Positions 4,742 to 10,279 of a stretch of 64,000 nucleotides of DNA are shown one piece after another. This DNA is from Brevundimonas sp. G8 (lineage in GTDB: Bacteria; Pseudomonadota; Alphaproteobacteria; Caulobacterales; Caulobacteraceae). A model generated the notes under the pieces. It saw nothing but the letters and a program-made list of their open reading frames with translations. It had not been told where the DNA came from and did not search any database. How positions within the stretch are numbered: position 1 is the first letter of the stretch; each line of letters opens with the position of its first letter. The position numbers were made by a program, and so were the translations under genes. The stretch covers positions 1,352,106-1,416,105 of the forward strand of contig NZ_LR732816.1 of assembly GCF_902506205.1 (NCBI RefSeq), in the 5' to 3' direction.

Positions 4742-5200
4742 ATGCGTCGATCCCAATGGCTTTCGCTCGCCGCCTGCGCTGTGCTGATGGCCGGATGTCA
4801 GCCCTCCGGCCCCGGAGCGCCCGCATCCAGCGATTCGGCGTCGAACCCCGACGTGATCGATGCGGTTCCACTACAGCCGGAAACCGCGCCGGTCGCTCCG
4901 CCTGCCAAGGCGGATGCTCCGGCCAAGGAGCCGGCAAAGCCCGTAGAGGAGCCCCAGGCCAGCATCCCCGAGGGGCCGGACATGGCGCCTCAGCCGGTTC
5001 CGGTCAGCGAAGTTCCATGTCGCGAAGCCATCGGGGCCGCCGCCTCGGCCCGCCTGGTCGAGCGCTGCATCCAGGTCAGCCCGGCGACCCGCCCGCCCTG
5101 CAACGCCGCCAACCCTTGCGACCTGATCCAGGGCGAGATCGACCGCTCCTGCAAGCTGTGGGAACGCGACGGCGACCCGCCGGCGGCGTGTAAGCCCTAA
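4742..5200 (+). CDS. Small Ala/Pro-rich lipoprotein of unknown function
   Basis: The predicted product is 152 residues. It starts with a short basic stretch and hydrophobic segment followed by a lipobox LMAGC, so it is very likely a lipoprotein cleaved and lipidated at that Cys. After it come a low-complexity Ala/Pro/Glu linker and a C-terminal segment with five cysteines (VPCREA, ERCIQV, PPCNAANPC, RSCKLW, AACKP), which could form disulfides in the periplasm. I do not recognise a named family. The ATG at 4742 follows GGAGAC at a good distance; the earlier ATG at 4697 would put extra residues before the signal peptide. It converges on the glmM remnant only 10 bp downstream. Confidence 0.75.
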   Translation: MRRSQWLSLAACAVLMAGCQPSGPGAPASSDSASNPDVIDAVPLQPETAPVAPPAKADAPAKEPAKPVEEPQASIPEGPDMAPQPVPVSEVPCREAIGAAASARLVERCIQVSPATRPPCNAANPCDLIQGEIDRSCKLWERDGDPPAACKP

Positions 5201-5210
5201 AGGCCGACCC

Positions 5211-5453
5211 TCAGCCGGCGGCGCGCACCGCGCCGGCAACATCGGCCACCACCCGTTTCACCAGCGCCTCGTCGTCGCCTTCGGCCATGACGCGGATCAG
5301 CTTTTCCGTGCCCGACGGCCGCACCAGCAACCGCCCCTGACCGTTCAGCGCCGCCTCGGCCTCGGCGATGGCGACCTTGACCGTGTCTGTCTCCAGCGGC
5401 TTTTCGGCGGTGAAGCGGACGTCTCCAGCTTTTGCTGCACCGGATCGAACTGA
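5211..5453 (-). pseudogene. glmM: Remnant of a glmM 3' end
   Basis: About 210 bp here align to the 3' end of the intact glmM at 8930-9173 with roughly 11 substitutions and one 1-nt deletion (near 5422), about 94% identity by eye. The conceptual product keeps the phosphate-binding motif [15 protein letters not shown] and ends AGAVRAAG in place of the intact VKTAG terminus, then a TGA. Upstream, homology stops abruptly after GGATCGAACTGA, and the deletion puts the retained codons out of frame. It therefore cannot make a mutase. It sits exactly where glmM would end if it had once converged directly on the lipoprotein gene, so it may be the displaced original end of glmM. Confidence 0.9.
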
Positions 5454-5678
5454 CGGACGGACAGTCAGCAGCGAAGAGCGTGGGATGGGCGGTCGTCAGA
5501 GCGCCCAGGTCGTAAGGCCCGAACACGGTCGATCGTGATGCACTCCGATCAAAGGTGATCAAACCCCGTCAATCCGACGGAATAACTCAGGGCGCGACAG
5601 GCGCGACTTTGTTCGCAAAACTTCCGGCGACCGGTGGACGGTTCGCGAACAAAACGGTTGTTGACGACAGGTTGCCCC
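5454..5678. other. Non-coding leader of the relaxase gene, candidate oriT or operator
   Basis: No gene is visible in these 225 bp. Close to the relaxase start there are an 8-bp direct repeat GGCGCGAC (twice in 5591-5607), an inverted repeat TTTGTTCGC (5608-5616) with GCGAACAAA (5645-5653), and inside the right arm a perfect palindrome GTTCGCGAAC (5641-5650). Inverted and direct repeats just upstream of a relaxase gene are typical of origins of transfer and of relaxase autoregulation sites. No nick-site consensus is claimed. Confidence 0.45.
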
Positions 5679-7616
5679 ATGGCCACGCCTCACGATCCTG
5701 ACGATTTTCCATTTCGTCCGTCAATGACGGCCCACAGAGATCACTATCCCCGCGGGGCCGTCGGCCTGCCCGGTCGTGCGACGGCGTCGATGACCTTGAG
5801 AGCGAGAACACGACACTTTGCCGCCAAGACCGTCGCGAAGCGGGTCCGGCCTGCCTTCCGGGGCGCCGGGCCGTCGCGTCGCGTATTCGTGAAGGTCAAG
5901 GTCGTGATGAGGACACCGAACGCGCGCGCCTCCCTGAAAGCTTGTGTGCGATATTTCGGACGGGAGGGCGCTGGCGAGGAGGGCGCGAGAGCGGCGTTTT
6001 TCGGGCCGCAGGAGGACCGGCCTGACGCCAAGGCGGAGGTCGATCGGTGGGCCGATGACCGCCGTCATTACCGGATCGTCGTGAACCCGGAGGATGGACA
6101 AGAGCTCGCGGACGTCAGGCAGTTCGCACGTCGGATGATGAAACAGGTTGAGATCGACACCGGCACGCCGCTCGAATGGCTCGCCGTGACGCACTACGAC
6201 ACCGGACGGCCCCATCTCCACATCATTTTACGCGGTCTGCGCGACGACGGGCGCGACCTTGTCTTCAGCCGCGGTTATGCAGCACAAGGCCTGCGCAGCC
6301 GGTGCGAGGCCCTGGCGACCGAAATCCTGGGTCCGAGATCCGACCGGACGGCCTCCACCCGTGATCTGACGGCGGACCGATTGACGGCGATGGATGACAC
6401 GCTTTTGCGCAGTCAGGGCGACGGCAAGCTCAATCTCGAGGGTCTGGAAAGCGGAGAAAGAGCCAACGCCCTCCGCCGTCTGGTCCATCTTGAGCGTCGC
6501 GGATGGGCTCAGCGAGATAGCCAAGGCTTTTGGGCCGTCCCTGAAAATCTGCGCGATATACTGCGGAATCTCGGTGAACAGGAGGCGCGTGAAGCCGCCG
6601 CGACGCGCGCCATCTGGGGCGGCTTTTGGGGCGGGCAAACCGATCGCCTTGAACCGCTGAGTCTCTCGGAAGGCGAGGTGGTCGCTGGCGCTTACGCCGG
6701 CGTTCAGCCGCTCAAATGGCACAAGAAAGCGGCCCAGTTGCTCGTGCTCGAGACCATGGATGGACGTCTGGGGCATGTCCGGCTGGCGTCATTGGATCGC
6801 GTCATGATCCTGGATCGCGTGCCCGAGCGGGCCGTCATCGCGTTGCGGGGAAGGCCATGGAGGGAAAGGACTTCGGACCAGACCATCGCCCAGGTCGCGC
6901 GATTGAGAAACGGCGTCTACTCTGAAGGCGATCATCTTGCGGTCCGGCCCGAAGATCGGTCTGGTTTCATAGAGCGCCATCTTCGACGGCTCGAAGCGAT
7001 GCGCCGCGAAGGCGCGGTTGAGCCTCTGGGCGAAGGCCGGTTCGCCATTCCACCCGACTACATCTCGCGGGCGTCGGCGGCGGATCAGGCGCGCCACGGT
7101 CCCACCGACGTCGAAGTCCGCGTGCTCGATGTCAGGCCTCTGCACCTCCAGACCGCAGCGCGTGGGGTCACGTGGCTGGACCGGGTTGCTGGCGGGTTCG
7201 AACCTGATCCCGGCGCGGGCGCCATGGCGGATGAAGCCAGGAAGTTGGGACAAGAACGGGCTGAGATTCGCAAGGGGTGGGGGATCGGCGATGGCGATGG
7301 CTCAAAGCTTGCCGACAAGGACATGCTCACCCTCTGGACGATGGAGCTAGAGACCCAGTTCAAGAGGCTTGGAAAAGGCGAGAAACTGGTCGTCAAGGCT
7401 GAGGAGGGGCAGCCCTTCTCGGGCGTCTACGACGATAGAGTTCACATGGGCGGTCGAACCTATGCGGCGGTCGAGAGCCGCACCGTGGTCACCCTGGCGC
7501 CTTGGCGAGCGGGTTTGGAGGCGTGTCGTGGCCAGGGTCTCACCGGGGTCCTGCAGGCAGGGCAGGTGGAGTTTCGGTTCGGAGAGCGTGGCCGGGGTCT
7601 GGGACTCGAGCTCTAG
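5679..7616 (+). CDS. Relaxase/mobilization nuclease, VirD2-like with DUF3363 domain
   Basis: This 645-residue protein resembles the VirD2-type relaxases with a C-terminal DUF3363 domain found in integrative and conjugative or mobilizable elements. The HUH metal-binding motif is visible as THYDTGRPHLHIILRG, with His172, His179 and His181 counted from the ATG at 5679; an upstream GRE-rich segment (around 90-165) fits the relaxase core. Such enzymes nick DNA at oriT through a tyrosine and pilot it to a recipient cell. The start is uncertain: ATG 5634 adds 15 residues. No type IV secretion, coupling protein, integrase or plasmid replication gene is nearby, so at most it is mobilizable. It overlaps the convergent helix-turn-helix gene by 4 nt. 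Base composition is less GC-rich than the flanking core genes. Confidence 0.85.
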   Translation: MATPHDPDDFPFRPSMTAHRDHYPRGAVGLPGRATASMTLRARTRHFAAKTVAKRVRPAFRGAGPSRRVFVKVKVVMRTPNARASLKACVRYFGREGAGEEGARAAFFGPQEDRPDAKAEVDRWADDRRHYRIVVNPEDGQELADVRQFARRMMKQVEIDTGTPLEWLAVTHYDTGRPHLHIILRGLRDDGRDLVFSRGYAAQGLRSRCEALATEILGPRSDRTASTRDLTADRLTAMDDTLLRSQGDGKLNLEGLESGERANALRRLVHLERRGWAQRDSQGFWAVPENLRDILRNLGEQEAREAAATRAIWGGFWGGQTDRLEPLSLSEGEVVAGAYAGVQPLKWHKKAAQLLVLETMDGRLGHVRLASLDRVMILDRVPERAVIALRGRPWRERTSDQTIAQVARLRNGVYSEGDHLAVRPEDRSGFIERHLRRLEAMRREGAVEPLGEGRFAIPPDYISRASAADQARHGPTDVEVRVLDVRPLHLQTAARGVTWLDRVAGGFEPDPGAGAMADEARKLGQERAEIRKGWGIGDGDGSKLADKDMLTLWTMELETQFKRLGKGEKLVVKAEEGQPFSGVYDDRVHMGGRTYAAVESRTVVTLAPWRAGLEACRGQGLTGVLQAGQVEFRFGERGRGLGLEL

Positions 7617-7897
7617 GCATCGTCCTCCTTCGACTCCTGCGCGAGGCGCGGCTCGCGCGATGAAGACCGCAGCGCGCTGACCTGCAGCTTGGCCCAGTCC
7701 CGAAGCTGACGTCTCGGATAGTAGGGGCGTTTTCGAAGGTGGATATAGGGCGGACCGTCCAACCCCAGGCACAGCATTTTCGCTAGCGTGGACGGAGCGA
7801 GTTGAATGCCCAAGGCGGCGAGTTCACGCGACGCTTCCTTTCGATTCAGAAGACGATTTTCGTATTCGACTGCCCTATTTGCATCTGCGTCTCCCAA
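7613..7897 (-). CDS. Small helix-turn-helix (excisionase/AlpA-like) DNA-binding protein
   Basis: The 94-residue product carries a segment from LLNRKEASRELAALG through STLAKMLCLGLDGPPYIHLRKRPYYPRRQLRDWAK. This is the layout of MerR/AlpA-like winged helices used by excisionases and by small regulators near relaxase genes: a helix-turn-helix, then a GPPY/F..RRPLY-type wing and the DW(A) end. It probably regulates the element or its mobilization, but no target can be read. It is convergent with the relaxase (4-nt overlap) and lies 10 bp downstream of the MNT-HEPN gene on the same strand, so the two minus-strand genes may form a transcript. Confidence 0.7.
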   Translation of the reverse strand: MGDADANRAVEYENRLLNRKEASRELAALGIQLAPSTLAKMLCLGLDGPPYIHLRKRPYYPRRQLRDWAKLQVSALRSSSREPRLAQESKEDDA

Positions 7898-7907
7898 GGT
7901 TGACGAC

Positions 7908-8843
7908 CTATCCGGCGCTCCCGACCTTCACCCTGAGGTCTTCAATGCGCGCCTTGCTGAGTTCGGCGACCCGATCGCGCAGACACCGAGCCCGCGCCAT
8001 GAGCCACTCCAGGTCTTCGGACGAGGCATCATATTGGTCGCTGTACCGCGCTTCGACATAGGCCCGTTTCAGCAGTTCGAACCGGCGGCGATCGAAGCGG
8101 CCTTCACGCGGCCAGGCCTCGACCAGGCTGGTGTTTACGTCCTCGGCCAAGGAGCGGAGGAACTTGATGTTGTGCGAGCGCGGAAAATAGAAGGTGTGGA
8201 CGAGGAGAAAGCAGGCGTAGGAAGTCTCGACCGCTTGGTGGAGATTGAAGGCGGCGTGAGCTCGGAGGTGAGGTTCCGCGTCTGATCGATCCATCTGCCC
8301 TTGAGCGGTATTCAACCACTCGCCGATATCGCGGTGTTTCTTCTCATAGAACCGCACCGCCGTATCAAGCGCGTCTTGCGCCGTCATCGGCTGCGGCGTC
8401 GCGAAGGGATGGCCGGGAACTTCGTAAAGGGCGATGCCGTCGCGGACGATGTCAGTCCAGAAGTACTCGCCGCGTCGCAGGGCGTCGTTCACCTCATGAA
8501 GATCGTGAACGATCAGATTGACGGTGCGGCCGATGGCCGGGTCGCGAAGGATTTGATCCTCAGAGCTCCACCAGTAGTCGGCGATGTTGGTGAGCTTCTC
8601 GTGGTTGACCACGATCAGGAGGTCGAAGTCCGAGAGATAGCCATTCTCCGGCTCGTCGACCCAGTCCGTCCGTGCGTACGACCCGAACAGGATGATCTTG
8701 AGGATCTGGCCGCCGCGTCTCCAACCGGAGTTGGCGCCGCCGCCGCTTGTCCTGGCCGCTTCAAATCCGGCAAGCAGGATGTCGCGAACGCGTCGAAGTT
8801 CACGTTGCTGACGCTCCGGCAGATGTTCCAGATCGGACTGCAT
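7908..8843 (-). CDS. Single-chain MNT-HEPN protein (nucleotidyltransferase plus HEPN domain)
   Basis: The 311-residue protein joins a minimal nucleotidyltransferase domain (around 1-130) to a HEPN domain (around 155-300). The nucleotidyltransferase signature is visible as ILFGSYARTDW (Gly54-Ser55) followed by SDFDLL with acidic Asp72 and Asp74. The HEPN part has the helical pattern AAFNLHQAVETSYACFLL and then PRSHNIKFLRSLAED; the classical RNase motif R-x4-6-H is not obvious. In HEPN/MNT toxin-antitoxin pairs the MNT partner adenylylates the HEPN toxin; here both are on one chain, so an autonomous toxin-antitoxin or defence role is possible but inferred. It belongs to the inserted segment between the two glmM ends. 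Confidence 0.8.
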   Translation of the reverse strand: MQSDLEHLPERQQRELRRVRDILLAGFEAARTSGGGANSGWRRGGQILKIILFGSYARTDWVDEPENGYLSDFDLLIVVNHEKLTNIADYWWSSEDQILRDPAIGRTVNLIVHDLHEVNDALRRGEYFWTDIVRDGIALYEVPGHPFATPQPMTAQDALDTAVRFYEKKHRDIGEWLNTAQGQMDRSDAEPHLRAHAAFNLHQAVETSYACFLLVHTFYFPRSHNIKFLRSLAEDVNTSLVEAWPREGRFDRRRFELLKRAYVEARYSDQYDASSEDLEWLMARARCLRDRVAELSKARIEDLRVKVGSAG

Positions 8844-8929
8844 AGGAAGAGTCTACCGTAAACTCAGACGCTGTGAACCGCGAAGTTGCACGCATACGCC
8901 GCATAGGTTCGTACATTGTGTTATGGGTC

Positions 8930-10279
8930 TCACCCTGCTGTTTTCACAGCCGCTGCAACTTCAGCCACCACCCGTTTCACCAAGGCCTCGTCGTCGCCCT
9001 CGGCCATGACGCGGATCAGTTTTTCCGTGCCCGACGGCCTCACCAGCAACCGCCCCTGACCGTTCAGCGCCGCCTCGGCGTCGGCGATGGCGGCCTTGAC
9101 CGTGTCAGTCTCCAGCGGCTTTTCGGCGGTGAAGCGGACGTTCTCAAGTTTTTGCGGCACCGGATCGAACTGATGGGCCAGTTCGCTCATCGGCTTGCCG
9201 GATTCGACCAGGACCGCCAGCACCTGCAGCGCCGCCATCAGGCCGTCGCCGGTGGTGGCGTGGTCGTGCAGGATGATGTGGCCCGACTGTTCGCCACCGA
9301 TGTTGAAGCCGCCCTCACGCATCCGCTCCATGACGTAGCGGTCGCCGACCTTGGTCCGCTCCAGCGTCAGCCCCTCGGCGGTCAGTCGGCGCTCCAGCCC
9401 CAGGTTGGACATGACGGTGGCGACGACGCCGCCGCCGGTCAGGATGCCGCGTCTGGCCCAGTCCAGACCGACCAGGGCCATGATCTGGTCGCCGTCCACC
9501 ACCTGGCCCTTCTCGTCACAGATGATCAGTCGGTCCGCGTCGCCGTCCAGGGCGATGCCGATGTCGGCGCGGTAGCGTTTGACCGCATCGACCAGGGTCG
9601 CCGGATGGGTCGAGCCGCATTCGGCGTTGATATTGGTCCCGTTCGGCGTCACCCCGACGGGGAAGACTTCGGCCCCTAGCTCGAACAGGGTGGTGGGCGC
9701 GACCTTGTAGCCGGCGCCATTGGCGCAATCGACGGCGATGCGCAGCCCTTGCAGCGTCAACCGCTTGGGGAAGGCCTGTTTGGCGATCTCGATATAGCGG
9801 GCCTGGGCGTCGTCGATCCGCTTGACCCGACCCAGCTTGTTCGACGGCGCCAGGCCCTGGTCCAGGCCCTGGTCCATCATGGCCTCGATCTTCAGCTCGA
9901 TCTCGTCCGACAGTTTGTAGCCGTCCGGCCCGAACAGCTTGATCCCGTTGTCGGCATAGTCGTTGTGCGAGGCCGAGATCATGACCCCCAGGTCGGCGCG
10001 CATCGACCGGGTTAGCATGGCCACGCCCGGCGTCGGCACAGGACCGAAGGTGCGCACGTCCATGCCCACCGAGGCGAAGCCTGCGACCAGGGCCGGCTCG
10101 ATCGTATAGCCCGACAGGCGGGTGTCCTTGCCGATCACCACCAGATGGCGGCGGTCGTCATCGGTGCGGAACAGTTTCCCGGCGGCCAGACCCACGCGCA
10201 ACGCGACCTCGGCCGTCATCGGATAGGTGTTGGCGCGCCCGCGAATCCCGTCGGTGCCGAAGTATTTTCTGTCGCCCAA
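8930..10279 (-). CDS. glmM: Phosphoglucosamine mutase GlmM
   Basis: GlmM converts glucosamine-6-phosphate to glucosamine-1-phosphate on the way to UDP-GlcNAc, in the cytoplasm. The 449-residue protein starts [17 protein letters not shown] and shows the active-site serine loop [13 protein letters not shown], the metal loop [10 protein letters not shown], the sugar loop GGEQSGHII and the phosphate loop [12 protein letters not shown]. Length is normal. It is divergent from glmS, which makes its substrate. The last 240 bp have a near-duplicate at 5211-5453, and the intact C-terminus (AAAVKTAG) differs from the remnant (AGAVRAAG). The current 3' end may therefore have come with the inserted segment. 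The gene itself looks intact. Confidence 0.97.

What the first reader, a model, noticed from the sequence alone, without database searches (positions are those of the whole stretch)
5211..8932. Inserted segment between two copies of the glmM 3' end
A 94% identical, frameshifted and truncated copy of the glmM 3' end sits 10 bp from the lipoprotein gene; the intact glmM lies 3.7 kb away with a different C-terminus. Between them are a relaxase, a small HTH protein and an MNT-HEPN protein. The simplest reading is that glmM once ended at 5211, and that an incoming element brought its own glmM 3' end and displaced the original. The 210-bp homology is longer than a usual tyrosine-recombinase att core, so homologous exchange with related DNA is also possible.
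Basis: partly seen in the sequence, partly recalled or inferred. Interest (0 to 1): 0.75.

Follow-up and report, generated by a model that had tools for sequence, protein, structure and literature searches.

The report
Integrase-less mobile insert behind glmM
A small DNA element with a conjugation enzyme but no recombinase of its own has slipped in at the end of the essential gene glmM in a few Brevundimonas species, finishing that gene with its own copy of the last codons; this is a variant of a known way in which mobile DNA inserts without harming its host.

Summary
Window 5211-5456 is a truncated, frameshifted copy of the glmM 3' end (205/219 identical to 8955-9173). About 3.5 kb with an RlxS-like relaxase, a small wHTH and an MNT-HEPN protein lies between it and intact glmM. 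Of 131 Brevundimonas genomes, 4 carry this double copy with the same element at the same site; in 11 others the lipoprotein gene abuts glmM. The element has moved: between Brevundimonas sp. ASV9 and UBA6550 the relaxases differ at 10% of four-fold sites and host genes at 28% (p = 1.4e-12), and ASV9 sits in a clade whose nine other members are empty. Remnant and intact copy differ mostly in the last ~40 nt, where the remnant looks host-type and intact glmM element-type; the rest of the repeat is host-like or mosaic. No tyrosine or serine recombinase lies in any of the four copies. The wHTH model best matches the RdfS excisionase. I favour integration by one homologous crossover within the ~220-250 bp repeat; a recombinase acting in trans, or since lost, is the main rival. 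It works like e14 in icd without the recombinase: a new variant of a known kind. Side finding: the MNT-HEPN protein has an exchangeable ~42-residue HEPN helix.

The parts
5211..5456 (-). remnant of the original glmM 3' end, codons ~367 to stop, frameshifted in this genome; outer direct repeat
   Evidence: 94% to 8955-9173; end closer to empty relatives than to intact copies
5457..5633 (.). left end of the element, non-coding, upstream of the relaxase; common border in all four genomes; contains an inverted repeat TTTGTTCGC (5608-5616) / GCGAACAAA (5645-5653)
   Evidence: function of the repeat not tested
5634..7616 (+). RlxS-like relaxase, DUF3363, 660 aa (an ATG start at 5679 is also possible); HYDTGRPHLH and VRYFGREGAG motifs present
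7613..7897 (-). small winged-HTH protein, 94 aa, RdfS-excisionase-like fold in an AlphaFold2 model
   Evidence: no family hit
7908..8843 (-). MNT-HEPN single-chain protein, 311 aa, cargo; exchangeable segment aa ~155-196 (8256-8381)
8844..8929 (-). MNT promoter region and right end of the element (promoter-like hexamers TTCACA / TAGACT, 8877 to 8850)
   Evidence: a consensus match only
8930..8965 (-). element-type last codons of intact glmM (~36 nt)
   Evidence: sites differing between intact copy and remnant but shared by the intact copies of G000, G019, G091
8930..9176 (-). inner direct repeat: 3' end of intact glmM homologous to the remnant
8930..10279 (-). intact glmM, 449 aa
   Evidence: TIGR01455, 617 bits, cut-off 447.55
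4742..5200 (+). lipoprotein gene that abuts glmM in empty-site relatives

Best explanation
The segment is a small integrated mobile element (about 3.5 kb here, about 4.6 kb in ASV9 and UBA6550) with a relaxase, an RdfS-like wHTH and an MNT-HEPN cargo gene, and no recombinase. It enters by a single reciprocal crossover between a glmM 3'-end copy carried on its circular form and the host's glmM. The crossover leaves glmM intact with the element's last codons and pushes the host's own 3' end to the far side as a remnant beside the lipoprotein gene. I think the crossover is ordinary homologous recombination in the ~220-250 bp repeat, and that the same repeat allows clean loss. Transfer would be by the element's relaxase through another element's conjugation channel. 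Shown: structure, polymorphism, horizontal movement, uneven difference between the copies, no tyrosine or serine recombinase in the four copies. Inferred: circular form, RecA dependence, mobilization in trans. In this genome the element looks stranded, since no VirB4-family match was found.
For: Four of 131 genomes have the double copy with the same element and left border; 11 have the empty junction. At four-fold sites UBA6550 and ASV9 differ at 37/360 in the relaxase but 222/781 in host genes, p = 1.4e-12. The host tree puts ASV9 inside a clade (support 100) whose nine other members are empty, and UBA6550 with G002 (empty) and G120 (no second tail). In all four genomes remnant and intact copy differ more in the last 42 nt than in the body (p = 1e-10 to 0.012). 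In UBA6550, at 223-221 and 214 nt before the stop the intact copy has the base of its relative G002 and the remnant does not; at 173 and 142 it is the reverse: an exchange inside the repeat, not at its left edge. Whole-genome searches put no PF00589 or PF00239 match in any of the four copies. The relaxase looks selected (ASV9-UBA6550: positions 1+2 differ 2.9%, four-fold 10.3%).
Against: Gene conversion between the repeats after an integrase-made insertion could give the same mosaic, and variants private to both copies in G000 and in ASV9 show that conversion happens. The UBA6550 mosaic is not one clean switch: at 235 both copies have the G002 base, at 223-221 the sister G120 has the remnant's base, at 112-97 the remnant is not G002-like. 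Its remnant is closer to G071 (end 4/39, body 12/198) than to G002 (6/42, 21/198), so calling that remnant host-type is weak. UBA6550's intact end differs from the other three at 8-10 sites. An RdfS-like protein normally works with an integrase. G000-ASV9 and G000-UBA6550 relaxase divergence equals host divergence, and G000-G019 is only slightly lower (0.129 against 0.190, p = 0.014), so two insertions are needed but three are not proven. MNT is only 85.0% identical between ASV9 and UBA6550, below the flanks, because of its variable segment. The oriT-like motif of related relaxases is missing. No excised circle was seen.
Confidence: 0.5

Rival explanations
1. Site-specific insertion at the glmM 3' end by a tyrosine or serine recombinase that is supplied in trans, as in cis-mobilized or multipartite elements, or that was lost by the ancestor. 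The long repeat is then an e14-like att region and the mosaic is later gene conversion.
Against: None of the four copies carries a PF00589 or PF00239 match; the nearest in this genome are about 187 and 179 kb away. The exchange point in UBA6550 lies inside the repeat. A shared left border also follows from common descent of the element.
Confidence: 0.3
2. One ancestral insertion, lost many times by recombination between the repeats; ASV9 and UBA6550 later exchanged the inside of the element by homologous recombination.
For: G000-ASV9 and G000-UBA6550 relaxase divergence equals host divergence. Repeats with 87-99% body identity would allow clean deletion.
Against: Needs repeated losses in the nine empty members of the ASV9 clade and in G002, G120 and G088, plus an exchange whose ends coincide with the element's ends.
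Confidence: 0.17
3. The relaxase itself catalyses integration at a nic-like target in glmM.
For: The relaxase is conserved with its HxDTGRPHLH motif identical in 11 aligned sequences; in some empty sites the left border lies in a partly palindromic stretch of glmM.
Against: The border palindrome varies between genomes with the codons. The relatives' oriT-like motif is absent. This route would not explain the internal exchange.
Confidence: 0.03

Closest known systems
e14 prophage (and phage 21, recalled) in E. coli icd
   Same: Inserts into the 3' end of a housekeeping gene, supplies its own 3' end and leaves a 163-bp pseudo-copy on the other side (PMC6379469, passages)
   Different: e14 is a prophage integrated site-specifically; here there is a relaxase element without a recombinase, and the repeat behaves as a mosaic
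Integrative and mobilizable elements (IMEs)
   Same: Integrated, bounded by direct repeats, relaxase, no transfer apparatus of its own
   Different: [quoted passage not shown] this element does not
ICEMlSymR7A rdfS / rlxS genes
   Same: RlxS-like relaxase near an RdfS-like wHTH
   Different: Score far below the NCBIfam RlxS cut-off (357 against 850 bits); convergent order; no integrase or secretion genes in the element
HepT/MntA toxin-antitoxin
   Same: MNT and HEPN domains together
   Different: One chain; spacing GSX16DXD instead of GSX10DXD; no RX4HXY motif (read by eye from the translation; motifs from PMC7641770, passages)

Membership tests
Integrative and mobilizable element | own relaxase | tested here: met
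   PF03432 and PF11843 over cut-off; HxDTGRPHLH motif present
Integrative and mobilizable element | own integrase or serine recombinase | tested here: not met
   Six-frame searches of the four genomes put no PF00589 or PF00239 match in any copy. Of the other ORFs, 10 (4 in the window, 6 in ASV9) were scanned against Pfam without a hit; transposase families were not searched genome-wide
Integrative and mobilizable element | origin of transfer | tested here: inconclusive
   Motif seen before 5 of 7 related relaxases is absent from the window (exact search) and from the 250 nt before the ASV9 and UBA6550 relaxases (by eye); an inverted repeat lies at 5608-5653
Integrative and mobilizable element | direct-repeat borders and insertion polymorphism | tested here: met
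Integrative and mobilizable element | excised circle or transfer | not testable with these tools
   needs reads or mating
e14-type insertion in a gene 3' end | gene completed by element, pseudo-copy on far side | tested here: met
   element-type part limited to the last ~20-40 nt
e14-type insertion in a gene 3' end | element-borne site-specific recombinase | tested here: not met
ICESym rdfS/rlxS conjugation module | RlxS model score | tested here: not met
   357.4 bits, cut-off 850
ICESym rdfS/rlxS conjugation module | RdfS-like recombination directionality factor | tested here: inconclusive
   [not shown]
ICESym rdfS/rlxS conjugation module | type IV secretion ATPase in the genome | tested here: not met
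   PF03135: none in G000 and G019, present in G091 and G136
HepT/MntA toxin-antitoxin | GSX10DXD and RX4HXY motifs on two proteins | tested here: not met
   read by eye from the translation; motif definitions

The most novel reading that the evidence does not exclude
A family of relaxase elements that needs no recombinase: it carries ~220-250 bp of a conserved essential gene's 3' end as a homology arm, enters and leaves by host homologous recombination, always mends the gene, and re-equips its arm from each host by gene conversion. Its cargo, an MNT-HEPN protein, varies in one exchangeable helix that could set specificity.
Probability: 0.3. Interest if true: 0.7.

Novelty: new variant of a known kind. 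Interest (0 to 1): 0.5.

Why it matters
Surveys often find integrated mobile elements by their integrase. If a relaxase element can move between species with only a long copy of a host gene end, such elements are being missed, and an essential gene end can serve as a reusable landing pad. The pairs of filled and empty genomes make RecA dependence directly testable.

Tried and rejected
Excluded or dropped: second glmM tails in G127 and G006 lie at contig starts or ends; in G127 both contigs break at codon 342 and two N-terminal pieces lie at other contig ends, so it looks like two full copies split by the assembly, not this insertion. Full second glmM copies in G001 and G022 are not tails. The viral-contig scan with six peptide patterns of the relaxase found no relative; no phage or plasmid record covers 80% of the element in one place (the plasmid matches I looked at fall on the MNT-HEPN gene). 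The PADLOC hit for the MNT-HEPN protein is weak (PDC-S09, 3.1e-5). The HTH has no convincing sequence match in Pfam, NCBIfam, PHROGs or PDB. A palindrome in glmM at the left border was considered as a recombinase site and set aside because it varies with codons. The idea that an element-type glmM end marks former insertions was checked in 11 empty genomes: the closest still differs at 9 or more of about 40 sites. Paper searches for glmM as an integration site, integrase-free mobilizable elements and Brevundimonas elements listed nothing whose title or listed abstract describes this; I opened none of those papers, and most subscription papers are not in that library. The extra ECF sigma ORF in ASV9 and UBA6550 was noted and not explained.
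Full report
THE OBSERVATION. The window is G000:C1:1352106-1416105 of a one-contig 3.32-Mb genome. Named relatives with the same element are Brevundimonas, so I take the genus as Brevundimonas. The 3' end of glmM (stop at 8930) matches 5236-5453 at 205/219 with one gap, E = 5e-93. The remnant reaches its own stop at 5211, 10 bp past the lipoprotein stop, and is frameshifted. Between the copies are a relaxase, a 94-aa HTH protein and a 311-aa MNT-HEPN protein.

POLYMORPHISM. I searched all 131 held genomes of the genus with the glmM tail (129 had a match). Four have a tail-only second copy next to this element: G000, G019 (B. intermedia B-10), G091 (sp. ASV9) and G136 (UBA6550); the names come from equal contig lengths. 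Other double hits are full second genes or contig ends (G001, G022, G006, G127). Neighbourhoods were read for the 30 glmM loci (1.5-kb flanks) and the 20 loci. In 11 genomes (G103, G071, G085, G062, G002, G079, G088, G126, G128, G129, G153) the rph and lipoprotein genes lead straight into glmM. In G120 one ORF intervenes. The remaining loci showed no lipoprotein match beside glmM; the neighbourhoods of the other genomes were not read. In G019 the MNT gene is broken and the HTH and the relaxase end are gone, so that copy is decaying.

MOBILITY. Host genes of ASV9 and UBA6550 are 88.6-91.4% identical (lipoprotein gene 74.2%), relaxase and HTH 94.8 and 93.8%, MNT 85.0%. At four-fold sites host genes differ at 222/781 and relaxase at 37/360, p = 1.4e-12; for G000 against either, host and relaxase agree (0.274-0.285 and 0.284); for G000-G019 they are 0.190 and 0.129, p = 0.014. 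A host tree from grpE, rph, glmS and 5' glmM of 16 genomes places ASV9 in a clade of ten (support 100) whose other nine members are empty, and UBA6550 with G002 and G120 (100). Along the locus the ASV9-UBA6550 identity is mostly 91-98% inside the element and mostly 83-93% outside, lower in the lipoprotein gene; the MNT variable part is the exception inside (68%). The element therefore moved at least once between lineages; two or three insertions are the simplest count.

THE REPEAT. In each filled genome the copies are alike in the body and less alike at the end: body 12/199, 25/200, 1/200 and 17/198 differences, last 42 nt 13/42, 12/38, 13/39 and 10/42 (G000, G019, G091, G136). Between the 11 empty genomes body and end differ equally (0.074 and 0.081). 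Remnant ends are 0-4 differences from the closest empty genome. Intact ends differ from every empty genome at 9 or more sites; those of G000, G019 and G091 differ from each other at 2-5, while G136's differs from these at 8-10 and shares their pattern only in the last ~20 nt. In UBA6550 the intact copy carries the G002 base at 223-221 and 214 nt before the stop where the remnant does not, and at 173 and 142 the remnant carries the G002 base and the intact copy does not. A clean insertion at the left border would leave the remnant wholly host-type. Against a simple reading: at 235 both copies have the G002 base, G120 has the remnant's base at 223-221, the remnant is not G002-like at 112-97, and overall that remnant is closer to G071 than to G002. 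G000 and ASV9 have variants private to both copies, so gene conversion is also at work.

PARTS. The relaxase belongs with RlxS-like DUF3363 proteins but scores 357 bits against the RlxS cut-off of 850. HxDTGRPHLH is identical in 11 aligned sequences, 4 of them from this element; I recognise it from memory as a relaxase histidine motif. Of 7 related relaxases outside glmM whose upstream DNA I printed, 5 share a stretch (GGCAGGGCAAGATAAAATCC type) that may be an oriT; this element lacks it. Of the 19 loci away from the chromosomal glmM site, 9 have relaxase, HTH and MNT together, 8 of them in the same convergent order. The HTH model (pLDDT 75.8) has the RdfS excisionase 8dgl as best PDB match in both searches, just above other wHTH proteins. 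rdfS lies upstream of the oriT and rlxS in ICEMlSymR7A (PMC11963761, passages). Six-frame searches of the four genomes place tyrosine (PF00589) and serine (PF00239) recombinases elsewhere, none in the element; ten further ORFs of the window and ASV9 copies have no Pfam hit. Two loci with related relaxases do have a tyrosine integrase 6-7 kb away. G000 and G019 have no VirB4-family match; G091 and G136 do.

HOW IT WORKS. I favour a circle that recombines with glmM through the shared 3' end, mending the gene with the element's last codons. This needs no integrase and explains the long repeat, the fixed site, the remnant and the mosaic. The main rival is a recombinase in trans with later gene conversion; the RdfS-like protein favours it. 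I cannot separate the two without a recA test.

SIDE FINDING. In 33 related MNT-HEPN proteins taken from the fetched loci (70 of 131 genomes have a match at E <= 1e-30) residues 155-196 have a median pairwise identity of 29% while the rest has 75% (528 pairs). Of 82 pairs at least 85% alike elsewhere, 69 are under 50% identical there, yet some different backbones share one version. In the AlphaFold2 model (mean pLDDT 68, but 91-98 over most of this part) the segment is the first long HEPN helix. This looks like exchange of a specificity element and deserves its own study.

NOVELTY. The arrangement works like e14 in icd (PMC6379469, passages). It fails the IME definition on the integrase. I score it as a new variant of a known kind.

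Noticed in passing
window 8256-8381 (MNT-HEPN aa ~155-196): Exchangeable segment: nearly unrelated between proteins that are 95% alike elsewhere (including G091 and G136); forms the first HEPN helix in the model..
   Followed up: partly
L105 12045-12548 and L107 12045-12548: The elements of ASV9 and UBA6550 carry an ECF sigma-factor ORF between relaxase and HTH that the window element lacks.
   Followed up: partly
L109 (G001:C3:404001-424000): A 63% MNT-HEPN relative lies directly before a full second glmM-glmS pair followed by what look like surface-polysaccharide genes (by eye; not scanned).
   Followed up: no
L065, L066, L067, L110, L119 upstream of relaxase: Conserved GGCAGGGCAAGATAAAATCC-type stretch before related relaxases, a candidate oriT.
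   Followed up: partly
G127:C7 end and G127:C1 start: Both contigs break inside glmM at codon 342, and two N-terminal pieces lie at other contig starts: probably two glmM copies.
   Followed up: no
G000:C1:439538-440458: A second MNT-HEPN gene (78%) in the window's own genome, with no relaxase match in the 20 kb around it.
   Followed up: no
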